64,000 bases of DNA, from positions 186,001 to 250,000 of the forward strand of contig NZ_NFJH01000002.1 in the NCBI RefSeq assembly GCF_002159765.1, in the 5' to 3' direction. Position 1 is the first letter of the stretch. Each line of letters starts with the position of its first letter. Positions 6,648-13,237 of the stretch are shown here, piece by piece. The notes beneath the pieces were generated by a model. It was not told where the DNA came from, searched no databases, and saw nothing but the letters and a program-made list of their open reading frames with translations. Both the position numbers and the translations under genes were made by a program. The DNA is from Collinsella sp. An268 (lineage in GTDB: Bacteria; Actinomycetota; Coriobacteriia; Coriobacteriales; Coriobacteriaceae).

Positions 6648-7601
6648 ATGGCTTTGCGTTCCAAGCGCTCCCTGGCGGGCGCGGAGGCTGCCGGCGCCGC
6701 TGCGGTTGCGGTGCCCCCCAAGGAGGCGCCCGGCGGCAAGCGCTCGCTCGCCGGTTGGGTCTACCTGCTGCCGTCGATCGCCATCTTCGCGATCTTTGTC
6801 ATCTACCCGTTCGCCCGCACGATCATCACGAGCTTCTTCGCCACCACTCCGGCGGGCGGGCTGACCCAGTTCATCGGGTTGTCGAACTTCATCACGCTCT
6901 TCACCGACCCGCTCTACACCCAGGCGATCGCCAACACACTCATCTACGTGGTGCTCACGGTGCCCCTGACCATTGTGATCGCCCTGCTCCTCGCGGTTCT
7001 CACCGCGCAGGACCTGCCGGGCATGGGCATCTTCCGCACGATCTTCTCGGCCACCATGGGTATCTCCGTCGCCGCGGCCGCGGTTTTCTGGAACCTTCTG
7101 TTCAACGCCAACTCCGGCGTGCTCAACCGCATCATCGAGTTCTTTGGCGGTGAGGGCGTGGGCTGGCTCATCGACCAGAACTTCGCGCTCGTGTCGGTCT
7201 CGATCATCTCGATCTGGATGAACCTCGGCATGGCCTACCTGATCCTGCTCGGGGCGATCAAGAGCATCGACGGTTCGTATTACGAGAGCGTCGAGATCGT
7301 GGGCGGCGGGTTCTGGTATCGCCTCCGCCGGGTCACGGTGCCGCTTATCTCGCCGTCGCTGTTCTTCGTGCTGACCATCACCGTCATCGGGGCGTTCCAG
7401 TCCTTCGGCCTTATCGACATGCTCACGCAAGGCGGACCCAACAACGCCACGGTGCTGCTCATCTACCGTCTCTACCGCGATGCGTTCGTGAACTTCCGCA
7501 TCGGGTCGGCGTCCGCCCAGGGCGTGATCCTCTTTGTGGTGATCTTTGTTATCTCCTACATCCAGACCAAGCTTACCGAGGACAAGGTGACCTACCAATG
7601 A
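6648..7601 (+). CDS. ABC importer permease 1 (MalF/UgpA type)
   Basis: 317-aa inner-membrane permease with about six transmembrane segments. The cytoplasmic coupling motif near E-x-x-x-x-G (VEIVGGGFWYRLRRVTVPLISPSL) is of the EAA type of sugar permeases. A poorly conserved, Ala-rich N-terminal tail (first ~35 residues) precedes the first membrane helix. Start ATG 6648 follows a GGGGGTGG ribosome site. Its TGA overlaps the ATG of the next permease (ATGA), so the two are translationally coupled. Confidence 0.92.
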   Translation: MALRSKRSLAGAEAAGAAAVAVPPKEAPGGKRSLAGWVYLLPSIAIFAIFVIYPFARTIITSFFATTPAGGLTQFIGLSNFITLFTDPLYTQAIANTLIYVVLTVPLTIVIALLLAVLTAQDLPGMGIFRTIFSATMGISVAAAAVFWNLLFNANSGVLNRIIEFFGGEGVGWLIDQNFALVSVSIISIWMNLGMAYLILLGAIKSIDGSYYESVEIVGGGFWYRLRRVTVPLISPSLFFVLTITVIGAFQSFGLIDMLTQGGPNNATVLLIYRLYRDAFVNFRIGSASAQGVILFVVIFVISYIQTKLTEDKVTYQ

Positions 7602-8464
7602 TGCCCTTCTCCAAGAAATCGTCCGGTCGTGTGGCGGGCTCCGGTCTGCGCACGAGTAAGTCCGGGCTCGTTGCGACCTACGCGGTCTTGACCATCGCTG
7701 CCGTGGCGATTGGCTTTCCCATCCTGTTTTCCATCTCGCTGTCGTTCACCCCGCTCGAGGACATCATCAACGGCGTTTTTATCCCCACGTCGCTGTTTCT
7801 CGACAACTACGTGAACGCCTTCGAGGCGCAGCCCTTCGCGCAGTTCATCGTCAACTCCGTGGTCGTGGGCGTGGCCGGCACGGCGCTGCAGATCCTCTTC
7901 TCCATGCTCGCTGCCTATGCGCTCGTGTTCATCCCCTTTGGCGGTAAGCGCATCATCTTCCTTATCATCATGGCGACGATGATGATTCCCGCCGAGGTCC
8001 TCGTGGTCACGAACTTCCAGACCATCCGCGCCATGGGCCTCATCGACACCTACGCCGGCCTCATCCTGCCCGGCGTGGCCACCACGTTTGGCATCTTCCT
8101 CTACCGGCAGAACATGATGCAGATTCCCTCCGAGCTCAAGGAGGCAGCGGACGTGGCGGGGCTTTCCCGCTTCCAGTTCTTCGTCCGCGTGGTGGTGCCC
8201 ATGGTCATGAACACCACGGTGACGCTTGCAATCTACTTCTTCCTGGTGACGTGGAACGCCTACCTGTGGCCGCTCGTCTCCACCACCAACAACACGGCGC
8301 GTACGGTGCAGATTGGCCTGCGTACCTTAAACAGCTCCGAGGGTCTCTCCGACTTTGGCATGATGGCTGCCGGCGCCGTGATCACGTCCATCCCCACGCT
8401 CCTGCTCATCTTCTTTGGCCAGAAGCGCCTGCAGGAGGGCATGACCAAGGGCGCGCTCAAGTAG
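7598..8464 (+). CDS. ABC importer permease 2 (MalG/UgpE type)
   Basis: 288-aa partner permease with six predicted membrane helices. The EAA loop reads KEAADVAGLSRFQFFVRVVVPMV (written here in two overlapping parts: KEAADVAGLSRF and FQFFVRVVVPMV), matching the CUT1 permease consensus. It starts by a four-base overlap with the upstream permease gene. It ends 198 bp before the binding-protein gene, with a GC-rich stem-loop between them. Confidence 0.92.
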   Translation: MMPFSKKSSGRVAGSGLRTSKSGLVATYAVLTIAAVAIGFPILFSISLSFTPLEDIINGVFIPTSLFLDNYVNAFEAQPFAQFIVNSVVVGVAGTALQILFSMLAAYALVFIPFGGKRIIFLIIMATMMIPAEVLVVTNFQTIRAMGLIDTYAGLILPGVATTFGIFLYRQNMMQIPSELKEAADVAGLSRFQFFVRVVVPMVMNTTVTLAIYFFLVTWNAYLWPLVSTTNNTARTVQIGLRTLNSSEGLSDFGMMAAGAVITSIPTLLLIFFGQKRLQEGMTKGALK

Positions 8465-8543
8465 CGCCTGTCCGCTCCGCTCCGCGCAGCTCGTTACCAC
8501 GCGTCGCGCGGCTCGTTGCCCCGTGCCTTGCGGCTCTTCGTTG

Positions 8544-8588
8544 GCTGCGCGCGGTACCCGCTATCGGGTGTGCGCAGCGCCCCGTTTT
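8544..8588 (+). terminator. imperfect stem-loop with short T-run between permease and binding-protein genes
   Basis: GCTGCGC (8544-8550) pairs with GCGCAGC (8572-8578) and CCCG with CGGG inside; TTTT follows at 8585-8588. It may be a partial terminator or an mRNA-stability hairpin that lets the solute-binding protein be made at a different level from the membrane parts. Function is an inference. Confidence 0.4.
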
Positions 8589-8662
8589 GCTACCCGGTGC
8601 GTATACGCACGGTAGATAGTCCGGTTTAGACCCCAATTGTTGGTAACACGAAAGGAAACCCC

Positions 8663-9997
8663 ATGATTCAGCAGAACCTTACCCGCCGCTCGTTTCTGAC
8701 CCTCGCCGGCCTCGGCATTGCCGGCACCGCCCTTGCCGGTTGCTCCGGTGGCGGTGGCGCCGCCGCCGAGACCACCGAGGACGGCAAGACCGTAATCCTC
8801 TTCTGGAACTCCATGGACGGTAGCCGCGGCGACGCCCTTCAGAAGGTCGTCGACGGCTTCAACGCGCAGTCTGACGAGTTCGAGGTGCGCTCCGAGTACC
8901 AGGGCAGCTACGACGAGTCCACCGGTAGCTTCTTCAACATGGCAAACGGCGCGGGCGCACCGGCGATTGTGCAGATCGGCGAGCAGAATCTCCAGGCCAT
9001 GATCGACTCCGGGCTCGTTGCCAATGTCTCCGAGCTCATTTCCGCCCAGAGCTTTGACGATTCCGACCTCCTCGAGCAGGCCGTGAACTTCTACACCTAC
9101 GACGGTGCGATGTACGCCATGCCGTTCAACTGCTCCTGCCCGGTCGTCTACTACAACCAGGACGTTCTCGACGCTGCCGGCGTGACCGAGCTGCCGACCA
9201 CGTTCGAGGGTCTCACCGCTGCGGCCGAGGCCATTGCCGCATCGAGTGACGTCACGCCCGTCGGCCTCTACGCGTACGGCTATGCCCTCGACCAGATGGT
9301 CACCAACATGGGCGGCTACGTGGTCAACAACGAGAACGGTCGCAAGGAGCGCTGCACCGAGGTCGCCTACCGCGATCAGATGGCGGTGATCTTCAACTGG
9401 GTCAAGTCCCTGAACGACGCCGGGCAGTTCAGCCCGTTTAGCTCGGGCGACGACGCCATCAGCGGCTTCTCGCAGCAGCAGTGCGCCATCTACATCGACA
9501 CCTCTGCCTCCGCGCGCCAGATCATCGACGCTTGCTCGTTCAACGTGAGCATCGGCTTTCTGCCGGTCGAGGAGGGGGCTGAGGCCATGGGCATCTACGC
9601 GGGTGGCGGCGCCCTCTGCATCGCCGACGGCCTTTCCGAGGACGTTGCACGCGGCGTGATGGAGTTCTGCGCCTACGCGACCTCACCGGACGTCCAGGCA
9701 ACCTGGGCGGGCGACACCGGCTACTTCCCGATTTCCAACGGTGCCTACGAGACCGAGACCCTCTCGGCGGTGTATGGCGAGTACCCGCAGCTTCAGGTTT
9801 CCGCCGAGCAGCTGCGTAGCTCTAAGGTGAACAACATCACCGCGGGTCCGCTTTGCTCGCAGCTTCCGCAGCTGCGTACCGACCTTCAGACGGCGCTGCA
9901 GTCCGTCTTCAACGGCGGCGATGTGGACGAGGCGCTCGATACCGCGGTGCAGTCCACCAACACCGCCATCGAGAGCGCCAACCAGGGCGTGGCGTAA
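8663..9997 (+). CDS. ABC importer solute-binding lipoprotein
   Basis: 444-aa extracytoplasmic binding protein of the family 1 (UgpB/MalE-like) type. The N-terminus has a twin-arginine motif TRRSFL (7-12) and a lipobox LAGC with Cys27 as the lipid-modified residue, so it is probably exported by Tat and anchored in the outer leaflet of the membrane. A GGGG linker follows the Cys. Start ATG 8663 has GAAAGGAAA upstream. Last gene of the importer cluster; a perfect terminator hairpin follows at 10127. The ligand is unknown; linkage to a phosphatase-superfamily gene hints at a phosphorylated solute such as a glycerophosphodiester. Confidence 0.9.
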   Translation: MIQQNLTRRSFLTLAGLGIAGTALAGCSGGGGAAAETTEDGKTVILFWNSMDGSRGDALQKVVDGFNAQSDEFEVRSEYQGSYDESTGSFFNMANGAGAPAIVQIGEQNLQAMIDSGLVANVSELISAQSFDDSDLLEQAVNFYTYDGAMYAMPFNCSCPVVYYNQDVLDAAGVTELPTTFEGLTAAAEAIAASSDVTPVGLYAYGYALDQMVTNMGGYVVNNENGRKERCTEVAYRDQMAVIFNWVKSLNDAGQFSPFSSGDDAISGFSQQQCAIYIDTSASARQIIDACSFNVSIGFLPVEEGAEAMGIYAGGGALCIADGLSEDVARGVMEFCAYATSPDVQATWAGDTGYFPISNGAYETETLSAVYGEYPQLQVSAEQLRSSKVNNITAGPLCSQLPQLRTDLQTALQSVFNGGDVDEALDTAVQSTNTAIESANQGVA

Positions 9998-10126
9998 GCT
10001 CGGTGGCGCCTGTGCGCAGGTTAGCTTACCGCGCAGCATGGCTTGTGGGCGCATGGCACGCGTGATCTTCTAGCTCGCATACGGGTGTGAGCCTAGTGGC
10101 GTTCGGGTGCTCGAATACCTTTTGCG

Positions 10127-10154
10127 GGGCCGGTCCTAGGACCGGCCCTATTTT
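10127..10154 (+). terminator. rho-independent terminator of the ABC importer operon
   Basis: GGGCCGGTCCT (10127-10137) is followed immediately by AGGACCGGCCC (10138-10148), a 22-base perfect palindrome, then TATTTT (10149-10154). It sits about 130 bp after the binding-protein stop. Confidence 0.88.
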
Positions 10155-10233
10155 GCTTGAGACGCCAAGCGAAGCGTTGCGCTCGCCTGCGTTCGAACGC
10201 GCCACGCGCTTTGTGACGCCGGCGCCGCGCGTC

Positions 10234-10514
10234 TTGCAAGAATTGAGGTAGTGAACCCTTGCCGCGGTTTTTGCAAGAATTGAGGTAGTGAACCCGGGTG
10301 GTGAACCCGAGAAAAAGCCGGGTAAGGAACCGCTGGTAGAGGTCCTGCAGAAATCGAGGTAGTGAACCCGGTGCTGGGAAGGGCACCGAATCGCGTCTTT
10401 TCGGGTTCACTACCTCAATTCTTGCAGGAAACAACGGCGGGGATGCGGTCGGGTTCATTACCGCACGTTTTGCATGAAACCCAGGGGCGGGTTCACTACC
10501 GCGTTTTTTGCCTG
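10234..10514. repeat. cluster of six ~25-bp repeats, three direct then three inverted
   Basis: The unit ends in GGTAGTGAACCC preceded by a TGCA core and an A/T-rich centre. Plus-strand copies: 10234-10258, 10271-10295, 10344-10369. Reverse-complement copies (GGGTTCAC/TTACC...): 10403-10428, 10451-10476, 10489-10514. A partial copy (GGTGGTGAACCC) lies at 10296-10307. The most conserved part is TAGTGAACCC; the centre varies (AATTGAG, AATCGAG, ACGTGCG, AACGCG). Spacing is irregular (about 12-50 bp), unlike a CRISPR. No gene is seen in this ~470-bp interval. Each inverted pair could fold. Function unknown. Confidence 0.85.
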
Positions 10515-10524
10515 GGATACAACA

Positions 10525-10555
10525 AGTGGGCCCGAGATCGCATCTCGGGCCCACT
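10525..10555. terminator. perfect 14-bp hairpin between convergent genes
   Basis: AGTGGGCCCGAGAT (10525-10538), loop CGC, ATCTCGGGCCCACT (10542-10555). There is no clear T-run on either side. Its place between the importer operon (plus) and the DUF1015 gene (minus) suggests a bidirectional terminator or 3'-end stabiliser. Confidence 0.6.
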
Positions 10556-10627
10556 GCTTCGCCTCTAGCTTGATGTGGTTTGTCGTGCAACCGCGCAGCT
10601 CAGCGCGCAATCGTACAGCCTGGTGGC

Positions 10628-11884
10628 TCAGCGCGCGATGCGGTGGATGAAGAGGCCGCTACGTAGCTTAGGCTCAAACCAGGTCGATTTGGGCGGCATC
10701 AAAAGGTCGGCGTCCGCTACGGCGAGGAGCTGGTCGATCGTCGTGGCACACAGGGAGAACGCGACGCCGTCTGCGCCTGCGCGGCGCTCAAGCTCGGCGG
10801 TGCCGCGGATGCCGCCGACAAAGGAGATGCGGGCGTCCTCGCGCGGGTCGCCGATGCCGAGGATGGGGCCGAGCACGCGGTCCTGCAGAACCGACACGTC
10901 CAGAGACTCGACCGGTCCCGCCTGCGCAACGGCAGAGGCGAGTTCGGGCGTGAACGAGAGACGGTACCAAGATCCTGCCGTGAAGAGGCCCATCACGCCA
11001 ACCTCGGTGGATTCGACCGGCTCGGACGATGGCTCAACGGTAAAACCAGCCTCGTGGATGCGGGCGATGAGCTCGTCTACGCTCAGGCCGGCGCGGTCGG
11101 ACACAACACGGTTGTAGGGGAGGATCGTGAGCTCGCTTGCCGGGAAGAGGACGGACAGGAAGTAGTTGAAGGGCTCCTTGCCGGTGTAGGTGTCCGCCTC
11201 CTGCGCAGCGGCGCGCATCTCGTGCGCCACGCGCATGGCGGAGGCGGTGCGGTGGTGCCCGTCGGCGATATACGCGCAGGGTACGCGGGCGAACATCTCG
11301 CGTATGGCCTCAACGCTCTCGGGGCGGCGCACCTCCCAGACGCGTTGGCGCACGCCCTCCTCATCGGTGAAGTCGTACAGTGCTTGACCGGTCTTCACCT
11401 GCGCGAGGATAAACGAGAGCACCGGTTCGTCGCGGTAGGTGAGAAAAATGGGGCCGGTCTGGCAACCAAGCGCGCGGATATGCTCGATACGGTCGCGCTC
11501 CTTCTCGGCGCGCGTGTTCTCGTGCTTCTTGATGATGCCCCGGTCGTATTCGTCGACCGAGCAGATGGCGACGACGCCCGTCTGTGTGCGGCCGTTTTGC
11601 GTGAGCTCGTAGAGGTAGTAGCTCATCGACGGGTCCGCCTGGTAGATGCCCTCATCGATGCGCTCGTGCAAAAGCTCGGCGCCGCGGGCGTAGACCTCGG
11701 GTGCGTACATATCCGCGTCGGGGGCGAACTGTGTCTCGGGACGGTCGATGGCAAGAAACGACAACGGGTGGTCCGCCACGTAGGCGGCAGCCTCGGCGCG
11801 GTCGAAGACGTCGTAGGGGAGCGCGGCCACCTCGGCTGCCCGCTCGGGTACCGGGCGGATGCAGGGGAACGGCAAAACCTTCAT
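10628..11884 (-). CDS. DUF1015 family protein
   Basis: 418-aa soluble protein of the DUF1015 family, whose activity is not established. Family marks: the N-terminal PYDVF segment (about residues 24-28), YIADGHHR in the middle (the DGHHR block is the most conserved in the family), and the C-terminal LMPPKSTWFEPK motif. Start ATG 11884 has AAAGGATC upstream; a longer in-frame opening to 12016 lacks support. It is third in line after serC and serA on the same strand, a neighbourhood often seen for this family and suggestive of a link to serine or phosphoserine metabolism. Confidence 0.88.
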   Translation of the reverse strand: MKVLPFPCIRPVPERAAEVAALPYDVFDRAEAAAYVADHPLSFLAIDRPETQFAPDADMYAPEVYARGAELLHERIDEGIYQADPSMSYYLYELTQNGRTQTGVVAICSVDEYDRGIIKKHENTRAEKERDRIEHIRALGCQTGPIFLTYRDEPVLSFILAQVKTGQALYDFTDEEGVRQRVWEVRRPESVEAIREMFARVPCAYIADGHHRTASAMRVAHEMRAAAQEADTYTGKEPFNYFLSVLFPASELTILPYNRVVSDRAGLSVDELIARIHEAGFTVEPSSEPVESTEVGVMGLFTAGSWYRLSFTPELASAVAQAGPVESLDVSVLQDRVLGPILGIGDPREDARISFVGGIRGTAELERRAGADGVAFSLCATTIDQLLAVADADLLMPPKSTWFEPKLRSGLFIHRIAR

Positions 11885-12073
11885 GGTGATCCTTTCAGCA
11901 TTGTGGAGCCGGTGCAGGGTGCACCCGGACCATGTATGCCCTATTGTACCGTCCGCACAGGTGGTGCCGGCGGTCTTGTGTCCCTTGCCGCAATCCCTTA
12001 CGCGGCGATGACCCACCCCTGCCCGTCGCTTTGCGCGCGGAGCAGCTACTTGCGCGGCGCCTTACGCGTTGCC

Positions 12074-13237
12074 TTACTTGATTACGCGCACGCGGTAGAT
12101 GGCAGGAATCTGTTTCAGGGCCTCGATGGTGGAGGAATCGAGGTGCTCGTCGGTATCGAACATGGTGTAGGCGTTCTCGCCGGCGCTCTCGTTCACCATA
12201 CGCTGCACGTTGGCGTTGTCCTTCGCGAGGATGGCCGTGATCTGGCCGATCATGTTGGGGACGTTGGCGTGCAGGCACGCGATGCGGCTCGCGGCGCGCG
12301 CCTTGCCCATGGAGCAGGCGGGGTAGTTGACCGAGTGGGCGATGTTGCCGTTCTCGAGGTAGTCCTTGAGCTCCGAGATCGCCATGTCGGCGCAGAGCGC
12401 CTCGGCCTCGCCCGTGCCGGCGCCCGAGTGCGTGGTGATGAACGTGTTGGGCATGAGCACGGTCTTGGGAGTGGCGAAGTCGGTGGCGAACCAGGAGAGC
12501 GTGCCCTCGTGGAGGGCGGTGTCGACGGCGTCCTCGTCTACGATGGTCTCGCGCGCGAAGTTGATGAGGATGGCGCCGGGGGCGAGGAGCGCGAGCTGCT
12601 CGGGCCCGATCATCCCTATGGTGTCGGCCTTGCTCGGCACGTGGAGGGTGAGGTAGTCGCACCCGCGGCACAGATCCTCGAGCGTGCCGACGCGCTGCAC
12701 GTCGCGCGAGAGCTCCCAAGCGTGCTCGACGGAGATGAAGGGGTCGTAGCCGTACACCTCCATGCCGAGCGTGACGCAGGCGTTGGCCACCTTGGAGCCC
12801 ACGTTACCGAGGCCGATGACGCCCACGCGCTTGCCGGCGAGCTCGCGGCCGACGAACGCCTTCTTGGCGCGCTCGGCCTCGACCATGATGTCGGGGTCGG
12901 CCTCGTGCGTGCGCACCCACTGCATGGACTGCACGATGCCGCGGCTCGAGAGGATCATCATGCAGATGACCATCTCCTTGACGGCGTTGGCGTTGGCGCC
13001 CGGCGAGTTGAACACCACGACGCCCTGGCGCGCGTATTCCTCCACGGGGATGTTGTTGACGCCCGCGCCGCAGCGCGCGATGGCGCGGATGCCCGCGGGG
13101 AGGGTGACGCCGTGCAGGTCGGTCGAGCGCATGAGGATGGCGTCGGCCTCGTCGATGTCGTCGACGAAGTCATAGCCGTCGCCAAAGGTGACGTCCCCGT
13201 CCTTGGTGATGTCGTCGATGGTCTTGATATGGCGCAT
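12074..13237 (-). CDS. serA: D-3-phosphoglycerate dehydrogenase
   Basis: 387-aa NAD-dependent dehydrogenase making 3-phosphohydroxypyruvate, the first step of serine synthesis. An N-terminal substrate-binding part (RCGAGVNNIP), the Rossmann motif GVIGLGNVGSKVA, the FARETIVDE segment with the catalytic Arg, a catalytic His region (THSGAGTGEAE), and a C-terminal ACT domain (VPNMIGQITAILAKDNANV) that in related enzymes senses serine. Start ATG 13237 has TTAGGAGC upstream. Nine bp after serC, so co-transcribed. Confidence 0.94.
   Translation of the reverse strand: MRHIKTIDDITKDGDVTFGDGYDFVDDIDEADAILMRSTDLHGVTLPAGIRAIARCGAGVNNIPVEEYARQGVVVFNSPGANANAVKEMVICMMILSSRGIVQSMQWVRTHEADPDIMVEAERAKKAFVGRELAGKRVGVIGLGNVGSKVANACVTLGMEVYGYDPFISVEHAWELSRDVQRVGTLEDLCRGCDYLTLHVPSKADTIGMIGPEQLALLAPGAILINFARETIVDEDAVDTALHEGTLSWFATDFATPKTVLMPNTFITTHSGAGTGEAEALCADMAISELKDYLENGNIAHSVNYPACSMGKARAASRIACLHANVPNMIGQITAILAKDNANVQRMVNESAGENAYTMFDTDEHLDSSTIEALKQIPAIYRVRVIK

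What the first reader, a model, noticed from the sequence alone, without database searches (positions are those of the whole stretch)
10234..10514. Six-copy ~25-bp repeat cluster in mirrored orientation
Three plus-oriented and three minus-oriented copies of a TGCA...GGTAGTGAACCC unit fill a gene-free 280 bp. The TAGTGAACCC half is almost invariant while the centre drifts, as expected if one side is bound by a protein or RNA. Spacing is not CRISPR-like. It is bordered by a strong terminator on the left and a perfect hairpin on the right.
Basis: seen in the sequence. Interest (0 to 1): 0.6.

Follow-up and report, generated by a model that had tools for sequence, protein, structure and literature searches.

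The report
Genus-specific mirrored intergenic repeat family
The six mirrored repeats are real and belong to a previously unlabelled family of about 8 to 16 non-coding palindromic repeat clusters per genome in one group of Collinsella-like gut bacteria, whose copies keep overwriting one another and can flip in place; it resembles known bacterial intergenic repeats, and the protein that would act on it is unknown.

Summary
In detail: three plus and three minus copies of TGCA-N8-GGTAGTGAACCC lie at 10235-10512, between the terminators of two convergent genes. It is one copy of a dispersed family. Units sit on a 37-bp grid, mirrored about a centre near 10386, around an asymmetric ~160-bp core (10269-10429). 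A core model finds 8 to 16 loci in each of six of nine species of this genus, and none in 56 genomes of five sister genera. All placements examined are intergenic, with no clear preference for promoters or terminators. RNAalifold gives no covariation. Positions are mostly shared between species, but sequences are exchanged between loci: the window element is 96% identical over 228 bp to one at another locus in G003, and 75% to its positional counterpart. One element is inverted between two species. The window copy lies in a ~5-kb stretch resembling G003. Best reading: a new family of composite intergenic repeats, like BIME or BOX, kept alike by recombination; the acting protein is unknown. The REP-transposase link was tested and not supported.

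The parts
10235..10258 (+). unit +1 TGCAAGAATTGAGGTAGTGAACCC
10272..10295 (+). unit +2, first unit of the conserved core
10297..10309 (+). half unit GGTGGTGAACCCG in tandem with unit +2; the tandem pair is conserved across the family
10308..10332 (+). degenerate unit in the 37-bp register
   Evidence: read from the sequence; inference from spacing
10346..10369 (+). unit +3, inner plus unit
10403..10426 (-). unit -1, inner minus unit, end of the core
10451..10474 (-). unit -2, diverged (4 mismatches)
10489..10512 (-). unit -3, diverged (3 mismatches)
10269..10429 (+). asymmetric conserved core of the repeat family (model R1 match, 134 bits)
10215..10442 (.). stretch 96% identical, without gaps, to an element at a different locus (next to an Mrp-like gene) of genome G003
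10126..10149 (+). terminator-like hairpin of the plus-strand gene 8663-9997
10525..10555 (-). perfect 14-bp hairpin, terminator-like for the minus-strand DUF1015-like gene 10628-11884
7000..12200 (.). stretch mostly 91-99.8% identical to G003 (flanks 73-88%; the repeat itself 72%): probable recombination import that carried the element

Best explanation
The cluster is one member of a genus-specific family of composite, palindromic intergenic repeats (about 160 bp of core plus a variable number of 37-bp outer units). Shown: copies are dispersed, intergenic and mostly at positions shared between species; sequence is exchanged between loci; arm units differ in number between positional counterparts; one element is inverted in place. 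Inferred: the elements are non-coding repeats of the BIME/BOX/MITE kind. They spread earlier in the ancestor of six species. Their turnover now is mainly ectopic recombination (gene conversion, unit gain and loss, inversion) between copies, perhaps started by breaks at the hairpin-forming palindrome and repaired from another copy. Inferred: the conserved TGCA...GGTAGTGAACCC unit was, or still is, the recognition site of a DNA-binding protein, for instance a lost transposase or recombinase; none was identified.
For: Dispersed clusters with the same architecture in G002, G003 and G007 and divergent relatives in G000, G005 and G006; none elsewhere in the family. No placement overlaps a predicted gene. 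A joint alignment of 51 elements shows one asymmetric element behind all subfamilies. Inter-locus exchange: window element 96% over 228 bp to L040 at another locus, 75% to its positional counterpart L042; G000 rpsL-locus element 92% over 262 bp to the G006 element at the DUF1015 locus; tree groupings A_G000+F_G003 0.954, m2_G000+m4_G000 0.994, A_G006+rpsL_G000 0.985 contradict locus identity. Two inverted copies 2.6 kb apart in G003 look identical. In-place inversion G003 vs G002: 212/220 identical in reverse, 131/201 forward. Strong hairpin potential, DNA z -6.9, RNA z -9.0. Inner arms agree slightly more within than between elements (permutation p 0.002, or 0.018 without one outlier).
Against: No autonomous parent element or transposase with these ends was found, and no clean empty site or target duplication could be read, because intergenic DNA diverges too fast. 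The deep conservation of the asymmetric core and the presence of elements upstream of rpsL in three species could instead mean a cellular function. Several genomes are draft assemblies, so exchange or inversion at single loci could partly be assembly error. Repair starting at the palindrome is inferred, not observed.
Confidence: 0.6

Rival explanations
1. REP/BIME or TIR repeat mobilised by the REP-associated tyrosine transposase (RAYT/TIRYT) that these genomes carry.
For: One divergent Y1 transposase of this type occurs in the six species with elements and not in the three without; its best NCBIfam hit is REP-associated tyrosine transposase, though below the cut-off; a GGTAG core motif lies beside an inverted repeat in many copies.
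Against: The transposase occurs in 46 further genomes of the family that lack the element; it is flanked by its own TIRs (TTTGGGGACGGGNTC), which form a separate repeat family in the same six species; no element lies near it; GTAG is not fully conserved (GTGG, CTAG and GTAA variants).
Confidence: 0.1
2. MITE of a DDE-type or other transposase whose autonomous copy is lost or not assembled.
For: Terminal inverted repeats of about 40 bp in the G000/G006 subfamily; dispersed copies; inter-locus copying.
Against: No target-site duplication seen; no element split by a gene; position sharing between species points to little recent insertion.
Confidence: 0.2
3. Functional chromosomal site: an array of operators for a DNA-binding protein (nucleoid, segregation or global regulator) whose motif changes together in all copies of a lineage.
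For: Nearly invariant half-sites on a 37-bp grid; core conserved across six species; elements at the rpsL locus in G000, G003 and G005 with different motifs.
Against: Neighbour genes unrelated and no orientation preference; absent from three species of the genus and from sister genera, so dispensable; motif change is also explained by copying between loci.
Confidence: 0.15
4. Invertible switch (phase variation) controlled by a site-specific recombinase acting on the units.
For: One exact inversion between inverted units.
Against: Only one of eight positional sets is inverted; no promoter-like site in the window cluster; several copies lie between convergent genes; Phage_integrase genes show no matching presence pattern.
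Confidence: 0.07

Closest known systems
Bacterial interspersed mosaic elements (BIMEs) / REPINs
   Same: Composite intergenic palindromic repeats in alternating orientation, dispersed, able to form hairpins (PMC2817692, PMC3116915).
   Different: Unit is a 24-bp non-palindromic motif on a 37-bp grid, not a 20-40 bp palindrome with an invariant GTAG foot; about 10 copies, not hundreds; the transposase of these genomes is not flanked by the element.
BOX elements of streptococci
   Same: Composite repeat with conserved end modules and a variable number of internal units, differing in length between positional counterparts (PMC3049150).
   Different: No sequence relation was looked for or claimed; here the whole array is mirrored and no RNA covariation is seen.
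TIR repeats of TIRYT transposases (TIRtrons)
   Same: A TIRYT-like gene and a dispersed repeat occur in the same genomes (PMC3733652).
   Different: The TIRYT of these genomes has its own TIR, TTTGGGGACGGGNTC, unlike the window repeat.
MITEs
   Same: Short, non-coding, terminal inverted repeats, dispersed.
   Different: No target-site duplication and no parent transposon found.

Membership tests
REP/BIME (GTAG REPs) | GTAG tetranucleotide at the foot of a short palindrome | tested here: not met
   GGTAG in 35 of 51 cores, with GTGG, CTAG and GTAA variants; hairpin covariation only marginal
REP/BIME (GTAG REPs) | associated RAYT gene flanked by the repeats | tested here: not met
   no model R1 match within about 2-3 kb of the RAYT-like gene where the contig allows (the G006 contig ends in the gene); own TIRs instead
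REP/BIME (GTAG REPs) | intergenic, alternating orientation, dispersed | tested here: met
MITE | terminal inverted repeats, no coding capacity | tested here: met
MITE | target-site duplication | tested here: inconclusive
   none visible in aligned flanks, empty sites too diverged
MITE | parent transposon with the same ends | tested here: inconclusive
   no split element among genus-wide matches; draft genomes
CRISPR array | direct repeats with unique spacers and cas genes | tested here: not met
   mirrored orientation, conserved core between units; cas genes not searched for
Structured RNA | covarying base pairs | tested here: not met
   RNAalifold covariation term 0.1; no credible Rfam match
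BOX element | sequence match to boxA/boxB/boxC | not tested
   only the modular layout is compared

The most novel reading that the evidence does not exclude
The clusters are active substrates of an unidentified sequence-specific recombinase or DNA-binding protein that recognises the TGCA...GTAGTGAACCC unit, flips and copies elements between fixed chromosomal sites, and whose specificity has changed together with all copies (TGAACCC in one lineage, TGTACGC in another).
Probability: 0.2. Interest if true: 0.6.

Novelty: new member of a known kind. Interest (0 to 1): 0.35.

Why it matters
It adds an interspersed repeat family to a group of gut Actinobacteria for which one literature search turned up none, and gives a natural case in which repeats at shared positions exchange sequence and invert. 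That makes it usable for strain typing and for asking what homogenises such repeats when the apparent transposase candidate is not supported.

Tried and rejected
CRISPR (mirrored, no spacers); coding repeat (37-bp period is not a multiple of 3); structured RNA (covariation marginal); operator array of one regulon (neighbours unrelated); phage or plasmid origin (no match in viral contigs, plasmids or phages); tyrosine recombinase partner (PF00589 in all nine genomes); RAYT/TIRYT partner. Looking for clean empty sites at loci D and J failed because the intergenic DNA is too diverged. One literature search for Collinsella with intergenic repeat or palindromic found nothing on point.

Full report
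Observation. Six 24-bp units TGCA-N8-GGTAGTGAACCC, three on each strand and mirrored, are present at 10235-10512. The core motif is far above chance in the window. The cluster lies between a terminator-like hairpin of the plus-strand solute-binding-protein gene (8663-9997) and a perfect hairpin that scores as terminator of the minus-strand DUF1015-like gene (10628-11884).

Anatomy. Aligning clusters from related genomes shows units on a 37-bp grid at about 17, 54, 91 and 128 bp on either side of a centre; the two inner units start 57 bp apart in nearly all clusters. Around the centre is an asymmetric core of about 160 bp with a tandem pair GGTAGTGAACCCGGGTAGTGAACCCG at one end.

Distribution. 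Exact pattern scans find the clusters in three named assemblies: Collinsella sp. An307 and two uncultured Collinsella. A sequence-only model of the core, R1, finds further, diverged copies. My count of distinct loci from the rows is G000 16, G003 11, G002 9, G007 8, G005 11, G006 12; G001, G004 and G008 have none. None was found in 56 genomes of five sister genera, with stricter filters. The diverged copies in G000, G005 and G006 share the architecture but carry TGTAC-type as well as TGAACCC motifs. Of 47 placements checked with a codon-usage gene prediction none overlaps a gene; for the 46 with both neighbours the orientation is 29 tandem, 9 convergent, 8 divergent, against 17, 4 and 8 in the window.

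Evolution. Most positions are shared by two or more species. Sequences do not follow the loci. The window element is 96% identical over 228 bp to an element at an Mrp-like locus in G003 and 75% to its positional counterpart. The element upstream of rpsL in G000 is 92% identical over 262 bp to the G006 element at the DUF1015 locus. A tree of 60 elements shows further conflicts with support 0.94-0.99. One element is inverted between G003 and G002, 212 of 220 bases identical in reverse. The stretch 7.0-12.2 kb of the window is mostly 91-99.8% identical to G003 while its surroundings are 73-88%; this suggests that the window copy came in with an imported segment, which would explain why it is of the G003 type in a genome where most copies are of the other type.

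Mechanism. Dispersed intergenic placement, lack of a clear orientation preference and lack of RNA covariation argue against an operator set or a structured RNA. The palindrome can form strong hairpins. Exchange between loci, unit gain and loss and inversion fit recombination between copies; breakage at palindromes is known in E. coli (PMC3315005, PMC4245961), but that it drives the process here is inference.

Transposase test. A REP-transposase-like gene occurs in exactly the six element-bearing species of the genus, which looked decisive. It was then found in 46 family genomes without the element, has its own terminal repeat family (compare TIRYTs in PMC3733652), and has no element nearby. 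The link is therefore not supported, and shared ancestry may explain the co-occurrence; a species tree of the genus was not built.

Limits. One genome per species, several of them drafts; no within-species comparison; loci were matched by flanking DNA similarity and by eye for the diverged copies; gene predictions are my own; the partner protein search was limited to chosen families.

Noticed in passing
L169-L174 (gpmI-secG interval in five species, elsewhere in G005): A TIRYT/RAYT-like Y1 transposase of about 250 aa with TIR TTTGGGGACGGGNTC; that TIR is itself a dispersed repeat, 4 to 38 copies in six species, none in G001, G004, G008.
   Followed up: partly
window 7000-12200: Identity to G003 jumps from 73-88% to mostly 91-99.8%: probable recent recombination import covering the ABC-transporter, solute-binding-protein and DUF1015-like genes.
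   Followed up: partly
L042 3900-10250 versus L181 (G006): In G003 a ~6-kb block (phosphodiesterase, sugar ABC transporter) has an element at each end; in G006 the flanking genes are neighbours with a single element between them.
   Followed up: partly
L085 end and L084 1-2860 (G003): A LytTR-type and a 329-aa gene between rpoC and rpsL are bounded by two inverted elements about 2.6 kb apart that look identical.
   Followed up: partly
L203-L208 (locus J): G002 has the window-type repeat at an intergenic site where G003 and G000 (and, more diverged, G007) carry a TTTGGGGACGGG-type repeat instead.
   Followed up: no
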